Shown piece after piece: positions 15,093-15,834 of a stretch of 64,000 bases of DNA. Position 1 is the stretch's first letter. Each line of letters starts with the position of its first letter. Source of the stretch: Puccinia triticina (taxonomy: Eukaryota > Basidiomycota > Pucciniomycetes > Pucciniales > Pucciniaceae); contig NC_070564.1 of the NCBI RefSeq assembly GCF_026914185.1, forward strand, positions 496,001 to 560,000. The letters are read 5' to 3'. The notes under the pieces were generated by a model. It did no database searches, had not been told where the DNA came from, and saw only the letters and a list, made by a program, of their open reading frames with translations. The position numbers and the translations under genes were made by a program.

Positions 15093-15834
15093 ATGGCCGT
15101 CGGGGCAAACAAAGTCTCCAAGCAGAAACCCGACAACCCGCCTGGAAAACCCGCCGCCAAAGCAGGAACGACGTCGGCGAAGCAGCCTCGGAAGAGCCTC
15201 GAAAAGAAACGAAGTGATTGAATGTGTCCTGATGATCTTAAATTATTGCAAAACACGTCTAACAATTCTTCTGGAACTTCCTTTTATTAGCCTCGGACGC
15301 AACATCAGCCAGTAAATCGAAAAAACCTCATCGTTACAGACCTGGTACGGTTGCATTACGGGAAATCCGACACTATCAAAAATCCACTGATCTCCTGATG
15401 CGGAAACTTCCCTTTGCGCGACTGGTCAGCAGCTTATTTGTTATTCGCGTTTCTTTTTTGTTGTGGTTTCTGACTTTGAGATTTGCGCGTTTCATGCGTG
15501 TAGGTACGAGAAATCGCGATGGATTTTGCTCTGGCAACGGAAGATGGGGCAGCATTGAGGTGGCAAAGCAGTGCTTTACTTGCCCTGCAAGAAGCAGCCG
15601 AAGCGTCCGTCAACATCCAACATAGTTTCCTTCTTTTTGTTGTTCTGTCAAATCTGCAGCTTATGTTTCTTTATCTTTTGCCCTTATTTCCTTGTTGATC
15701 TCAGGTATTTGGTTCACATCTTTGAAGACACGAATCTCTGCGCCATTCATGCCAAGCGGGTCACAATCATGAAACGGGATATGGAGCTGGCCCGGAGACT
15801 GAGAGGAGGGCCTTGGGCATCGGAGGTGATCTAA
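15093..15834 (+). CDS. CSE4: Centromeric histone H3 variant (CENP-A/Cse4)
   Basis: It replaces H3 in centromeric nucleosomes and founds the kinetochore. Four exons: 15093-15213, 15291-15424, 15504-15604 and 15705-15834. All junctions keep frame and the product is 161 residues. Residues 1-53 form a basic Lys/Pro/Ser tail unlike H3. The histone fold starts at HRYRPGTVALREIR (54-67) and includes LLMRKLPFARLV, LRWQSSALLALQEA and ANL/FEDTNLCAIHAKRVTIM. CENP-A hallmarks are PFARLV (as in Cse4), Trp105 where H3 has Phe, and a loop 1 enlarged by about six residues (95-102, TEDGAA). The C-terminus RGGPWASEVI also departs from H3. Two donors (gtcagc, gtccgt) are weak but restore the family consensus exactly. 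The alternative, a canonical H3 gene, is excluded by the loop, the Trp and the tail. Confidence 0.93.

What the first reader, a model, noticed from the sequence alone, without database searches (positions are those of the whole stretch)
15093..15834. Centromeric histone H3 (CENP-A) encoded in four short exons with no long ORF
The gene shows no single frame longer than about 60 codons in the histone-fold part, so simple ORF calling misses it. Spliced by hand it gives a complete 161-residue CenH3 with the Cse4-type PFARLV, a Trp in the QSS helix and a divergent basic tail. CenH3 defines centromeres, and rust CenH3 genes are useful for mapping them.
Basis: partly seen in the sequence, partly recalled or inferred. 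Interest (0 to 1): 0.8.

Follow-up and report, generated by a model that had tools for sequence, protein, structure and literature searches.

The report
Ordinary rust-fungus centromeric histone gene
The stretch holds an intact four-exon gene for the special histone that marks centromeres in a rust fungus; it is the expected counterpart of genes already listed for related rusts, and a broken second copy lies on another chromosome.

Summary
Exons 15093-15213, 15291-15424, 15504-15604 and 15705-15834, joined across GT-AG introns (77, 79, 100 nt), give a clean 161-residue protein. It is a CenH3/CENP-A (Cse4-type) histone. The best full-length single-fold relative listed is a Puccinia graminis protein already named cse4 (161 aa, 89% identity). 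It has PFARLV, the Trp where H3 has Phe, and a loop 1 six residues longer than H3; a tree placing it with H3 is rejected (p-AU 0.003). The genome also has at least nine H3 loci, and Scm3 and Mis12 matches.

One addition: a 2.95-kb piece (14897-17849) with CenH3, COA8 and the 3' part of H2B is repeated on contig C10 at 94% identity. There CenH3 has a frame break, COA8 a stop, and H2B is cut off, so the window copy is the only intact CenH3 found. The finding is correct but ordinary.

The parts
15093..15213 (+). CenH3 exon 1: N-terminal basic tail
   Evidence: donor GTGATT
15291..15424 (+). CenH3 exon 2: end of tail, alpha-N, alpha-1, up to PFARL
   Evidence: acceptor TTAG, donor GTCAGC
15504..15604 (+). 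CenH3 exon 3: end of alpha-1, loop 1, RWQSS, most of alpha-2
   Evidence: acceptor GTAG, donor GTCCGT; helix limits by family knowledge, not computed
15705..15834 (+). CenH3 exon 4: rest of alpha-2, alpha-3, C-terminus GGPWASEVI, stop
   Evidence: acceptor TCAG
16353..17054 (+). Neighbour gene: COA8 (cytochrome c oxidase assembly factor 8); lies wholly in the duplicated segment
   Evidence: PF10231 44.3 bits, cut-off 27, on the open frame 16155-17051; start codon chosen here
17640..18225 (-). Neighbour gene: histone H2B, several exons; 3' end not settled (start of range approximate)
   Evidence: histone-fold hit 17814-17984 minus; PF00125 81.5 bits on a product joined by eye; ATG at 18225
14897..17849 (+). 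Segment repeated on C10:3772826-3775739 (94% identity); the right edge falls inside H2B

Best explanation
The window carries the only intact CenH3 (CENP-A/Cse4) gene found in this rust-fungus assembly, most likely of the genus Puccinia. Its product replaces H3 in centromeric nucleosomes, paired with H4 and loaded by an Scm3/HJURP-type chaperone, and so marks where the kinetochore forms. Shown here: gene structure, family, diagnostic residues, and matches to Scm3 and Mis12 in the genome. Inferred from the family: deposition at centromeres and kinetochore recruitment. The C10 copy is a decayed segmental duplicate. That C7 is the parent locus is inferred from the 5' part of H2B following only there.
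For: Clean 161-aa product from four GT-AG exons. Full-length orthologues in P. graminis (89%, named cse4), P. striiformis (87%), P. coronata (82%), and further ones in Melampsora, Austropuccinia, Cronartium, Phakopsora. A search with residues 84-125 alone gave 141 matches of 849 candidates; the 120 listed are led by rust proteins and unnamed metagenome entries, then other fungi, many named CSE4/CENP-A. Trp in 118 of 120 such sequences (window included), Phe in own H3; loop-1 span 13 residues against 7 in H3; 110 of those 120 came from that region search, so the Trp count is partly built in. Tree: nearest rows P. graminis and P. striiformis CenH3; four H3 rows form one side at 100/99; window with H3 rejected, p-AU 0.003. 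Scm3 34.1 bits (cut-off 24.3) on C1, 0 of 14 controls; Mis12 62.4 bits (cut-off 25.7) on C8, 1 of 14 controls under the cut-off. At least nine other H3 loci in the assembly; 8 of 9 read with LRFQSS.
Against: No transcript or protein data were available. Solved-structure phmmer ranks H3 first (60 of 60 listed, 176 hits). Pfam gives only the general Histone family over its cut-off (CENP-T_C 23.9 bits, under 28.1). CENP-C was not settled: PF11699 scores 26.9 bits, under the cut-off 29, with sub-cut-off hits in 4 of 14 controls too. In the larger tree of 29 rows the H3 group has only 93/81 support. The AU test was run after a first tree had been seen.
Confidence: 0.96

Rival explanations
1. It is a divergent replicative or replacement H3 that is not centromeric.
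For: H3 chains give the best raw PDB scores; PHRYRPGTVALREIR and FEDTNLCAIHAKRVTIM match H3 closely.
Against: Trp for Phe, long loop 1 and the FARLV motif; AU test rejects it with H3, p 0.003; the genome has at least nine ordinary H3 loci.
Confidence: 0.02
2. There are two working CenH3 genes, the C7 copy of the window and the C10 copy, with the apparent frame break in C10 being an assembly error or bypassed.
For: Within the CDS the copies differ at 11 of 485 aligned bases against 15 of 248 in introns; 6 synonymous and 5 non-synonymous changes. The break is in a short run of one base, where read errors are common.
Against: The neighbouring COA8 copy has its own stop codon and a 19-base gap, and H2B is cut off. 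Two of the C10 amino-acid changes, Q114E and M145V, hit residues that are the same in all nine relatives aligned. Neutral decay of C10 from birth is not rejected (13 synonymous, 13 non-synonymous for CenH3 plus COA8; binomial P 0.16).
Confidence: 0.06
3. The window copy is itself a pseudogene or a mis-spliced prediction.
For: Short exons, no transcript data here.
Against: Frame is open over all 161 codons and splices are GT-AG; length and sequence match orthologues of two other Puccinia species.
Confidence: 0.01

Closest known systems
Puccinia graminis f. sp. tritici Cse4 (P0062, 'centromeric DNA-binding histone H3-like protein cse4')
   Same: 161 aa, 89% identity over the full length, same motifs
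   Different: 16 of 51 tail residues and 2 of 110 other residues differ
Puccinia striiformis f. sp. tritici hypothetical protein MJO28_009205, 'Histone H3-like ...' in UniRef (P0072)
   Same: 161 aa, 87% identity
   Different: 19 of 51 tail residues and 2 of 110 other residues differ
Budding yeast Cse4 (PDB 7k78, 6uph)
   Same: PFARLV, LRWQS, extended loop 1, same fold family
   Different: Very long branch in the tree; the full yeast chain has 229 residues, so a much longer tail
Own replicative H3 (e.g. C17:1986068-1986621)
   Same: Histone fold, PHRYRPGTVALREIR and AIHAKRVTI stretches
   Different: Phe for Trp, six residues fewer in loop 1, PFQRLV, canonical ARTKQTARKS tail

Membership tests
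CenH3 (CENP-A/Cse4) | H3-type histone fold | tested here: met
   PF00125 145.8 bits, cut-off 26.4; H3 chains align over residues 26-153. By sequence; no structure was predicted
CenH3 (CENP-A/Cse4) | Loop 1 longer than in H3 | tested here: met
   Span 13 residues against 7 in own H3; 10-17 across the 120 CenH3-like sequences
CenH3 (CENP-A/Cse4) | Trp at the start of alpha-2 where H3 has Phe (feature recalled, then counted) | tested here: met
   W in 118 of 120 CenH3-like sequences including the window (1 Y, 1 F), F in own H3; most of these were found with the region that holds the Trp
CenH3 (CENP-A/Cse4) | Groups with known CenH3s, not with H3 | tested here: met
   Nearest rows are rust CenH3; AU test against the H3 grouping p 0.003
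CenH3 (CENP-A/Cse4) | N-terminal tail divergent, not the H3 tail | tested here: met
   No ARTKQTARKS; 35 of 51 tail residues shared with P. graminis against 108 of 110 beyond
CenH3 (CENP-A/Cse4) | Incorporated at centromeres | not testable with these tools
   Needs chromatin data
Replicative H3 | PFQRLV, short loop 1, LRFQSS | tested here: not met
   PFARLV, long loop, LRWQSS

The most novel reading that the evidence does not exclude
The C10 duplicate was a second working CenH3 for part of its life, or still makes a shortened product with the CenH3 tail and alpha-1, so that this rust passed through a two-CenH3 stage. Short-lived CenH3 duplicates are described in Caenorhabditis (PMC9577544, abstract read).
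Probability: 0.12. Interest if true: 0.4.

Novelty: new member of a known kind. Interest (0 to 1): 0.17.

Why it matters
CenH3 is the direct marker of active centromeres. [quoted passage not shown] there, centromeres were placed from Hi-C contacts and a methylation dip was used as proxy for the kinetochore site (PMC12129025, passages read). A correctly spliced gene model, with the warning that a broken near-copy exists on C10, helps such work and helps correct annotations that miss short-exon histones. It is a resource, not a surprise.

Tried and rejected
Raw score against PDB as a test of H3 versus CenH3: rejected as non-diagnostic. The top 61 rows (243-282 aa) outscore the P. graminis protein; the one looked at (P0001, named CSE4 in a Vombatus ursinus record) is two ordinary H3 copies joined, so those scores and names were not used; the other 60 were not read.

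An apparent H3 lacking the residues before QTARKS on C2 and C13 was dropped: the reading starts right after an AG, so the missing first residues most likely sit in an upstream exon (inferred, that exon was not located).

A CENP-C match was not accepted (under cut-off, 4 of 14 controls ring). No repeats at the breakpoints were seen by eye at the edges of the duplicate. Retrotransposon frames (Ty3-type capsid and reverse transcriptase on the left, reverse transcriptase on the right) lie about 6 kb left and 10 kb right of the C10 copy, but nothing ties them to the duplication. The constraint test on the duplicate has little power (26 changes, P 0.16).

Rows left out: the tree dropped six rows of the tree (yeast Cse4, P0159, P0196, P0200, P0206, P0228), which were long-branched, short or uncropped; the H3 group had 93/81, 100/99. 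P0091 (a P. striiformis entry whose exon 2 end differs) was left out of the trees, the rust alignment and the residue counts. Of the 141 matches only the 120 listed could be used.

The ninth H3 locus (L011 on C13) was not read in frame over QSS. Histone-family matches at C6:1098618 and C8:4193513 were not classified. The structure prediction tools were not used, as sequence settled the question.

Full report
WHAT IS THERE. The window lies on contig C7 (496001-560000) of a 122.8-Mb assembly in 18 contigs. 18 chromosomes and about 122-124 Mb are what is reported for each haplotype of the wheat leaf rust Puccinia triticina (123.9 and 121.6 Mb, GC 46.6-46.7%; PMC8957140, passages read), and the window has 47.3% GC, so that species or a close relative is the likely source; this is inference.

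At 15093-15834 on the + strand four exons (15093-15213, 15291-15424, 15504-15604, 15705-15834) join across GT-AG introns of 77, 79 and 100 nt into 161 codons and a stop.

WHAT IT IS. Pfam sees a core histone (145.8 bits); a CENP-T_C match stays under its cut-off. Against about 5.8 billion proteins (7995 candidates scored, a capped number; 120 listed), the best full-length single-fold relatives are the P. graminis protein named cse4 (161 aa, 89%), a P. striiformis protein (161 aa, 87%) and, after an unnamed metagenome protein (P0086, 165 aa, 81%), a P. coronata protein (159 aa, 82%). The 61 rows scoring higher than the P. graminis protein are longer proteins (243-282 aa); the one read, P0001, is two H3 copies in tandem. 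No entry of 90% or more identity over the full length is among the 120 listed, so the species' own copy may be missing or mis-spliced in public sets (not checked further). A search with only residues 84-125, which hold loop 1 and the first part of alpha-2, gave 141 matches of 849 candidates; the 120 listed are led by rust proteins and unnamed metagenome entries, followed by other fungi where an organism is named, many of them called CSE4, cse4 or CENP-A, though some are called plain histone H3 or hypothetical.

Three tests separate CenH3 from H3. (1) The Trp of LRWQSS is present in 118 of 120 CenH3-like sequences, the window included, against Phe in the genome's own H3; the residue after PF is Ala in 77 and Ser in 39 of 120, Gln in H3. 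110 of the 120 were found with that same region, so this count is partly built in; the independent part is that own H3 lacks the Trp and that solved yeast Cse4 chains have it. (2) The loop-1 span is 13 residues, 7 in H3. (3) In a tree of 23 rows the four H3 rows stand apart (100/99) and forcing the window among them is rejected (p-AU 0.003; run after a first tree had been seen); in the wider tree of 29 rows the H3 split has 93/81 and the nearest rows to the window are again the P. graminis and P. striiformis proteins. Since yeast Cse4 is itself on a very long branch, I take that ranking to reflect the slow evolution of H3 and not kinship.

HOW IT WORKS. By family knowledge (recalled), CenH3 replaces H3 in centromeric nucleosomes and is loaded by Scm3/HJURP; the kinetochore builds on it. 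The genome has an Scm3 match over the cut-off (0 of 14 control genomes ring) and a Mis12 match over the cut-off (1 of 14 controls rings, under the cut-off); the controls that the tool named here are bacteria and archaea, so they speak to chance matches only. A CENP-C match is under the cut-off and not conclusive. At least nine other H3 loci exist, eight of which were read with LRFQSS. The tail is basic (13 K/R, 3 D/E) and fast-changing: 35 of 51 residues are shared with P. graminis and 9-15 of 51 with Melampsora, Austropuccinia, Cronartium and Phakopsora, against 93-108 of 110 beyond the tail, the usual CenH3 pattern (recalled).

SURROUNDINGS AND THE SECOND COPY. Right of CenH3 lie a COA8 gene (16353-17054 +, PF10231 44.3 bits) and a histone H2B gene on the other strand (ATG at 18225). 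The DNA from 14897 to 17849 is repeated once more in the assembly, on C10:3772826-3775739, at 94% identity. The repeat ends inside H2B, so C10 has only the 3' part of H2B. In C10 the CenH3 frame is broken by a one-base difference in exon 3, and the COA8 copy has a stop codon and a 19-base gap. Two C10 amino-acid changes (Q114E, M145V) fall on residues that are the same in nine relatives (seven named rusts and two unnamed metagenome proteins); at residue 45 it is the window copy that differs from P. graminis, P. striiformis and P. coronata, with which C10 agrees, while the other six relatives have other residues or a gap, so the copies have probably been apart for some time. Divergence is 11 of 485 in the CDS, 15 of 248 in introns. 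CenH3 and COA8 together show 13 synonymous and 13 non-synonymous changes; neutrality of both copies is unlikely (P 0.004), but decay of C10 from birth with C7 constrained is not rejected (P 0.16). The simplest reading is a dead segmental duplicate, with a small chance of a spell as a second gene, as is known for CenH3 duplicates in Caenorhabditis (PMC9577544, abstract read) and for pairs of CENH3 genes in some cereals and cowpea (PMC8603533, PMC7738545, search listing only).

KNOWN OR NEW. Orthologues are already in public protein sets of other rusts, by name in P. graminis, Melampsora and Phakopsora. Paper searches with Puccinia/centromere/CenH3 (22 papers, 20 listed), rust fung/centromer/CENP-A (7) and rust/Puccinia/kinetochore/Cse4 (1) listed no study, as far as titles and abstract starts show, of CenH3 duplicates in rusts; only PMC12129025 and PMC8444563 were searched inside for these terms. 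The former says CENP-A (CenH3) immunoprecipitation is still needed to confirm rust centromeres. The finding is right and useful, but ordinary.

Noticed in passing
G000:C10:3772826-3775739 (L009:4327-7240): 2.9-kb duplicate of window 14897-17849 with broken CenH3, broken COA8 and truncated H2B; a Ty3-type capsid and a reverse transcriptase frame lie about 6 kb left and a reverse transcriptase frame about 10 kb right.
   Followed up: yes
window 8516-11968 (-): 1151-aa open frame of a copia-type retrotransposon (RVT_2, integrase core, retroviral SH3-like domains) about 3 kb left of CenH3.
   Followed up: no
window 54570-55925 (-): Ataxin-2-type protein frame (SM-ATX and LsmAD domains).
   Followed up: no
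G000:C5:1007399-1009725: Two H3 genes pointing towards each other about 1.5 kb apart, with the same tail residue variants.
   Followed up: partly
window 17640-18225 (-): An H2B gene is the close neighbour of CenH3; a second H2B-like match (by profile range and tail similarity, not tested further) lies at C15:3038704. Whether the CenH3-COA8-H2B order is conserved in other rusts could not be tested.
   Followed up: partly
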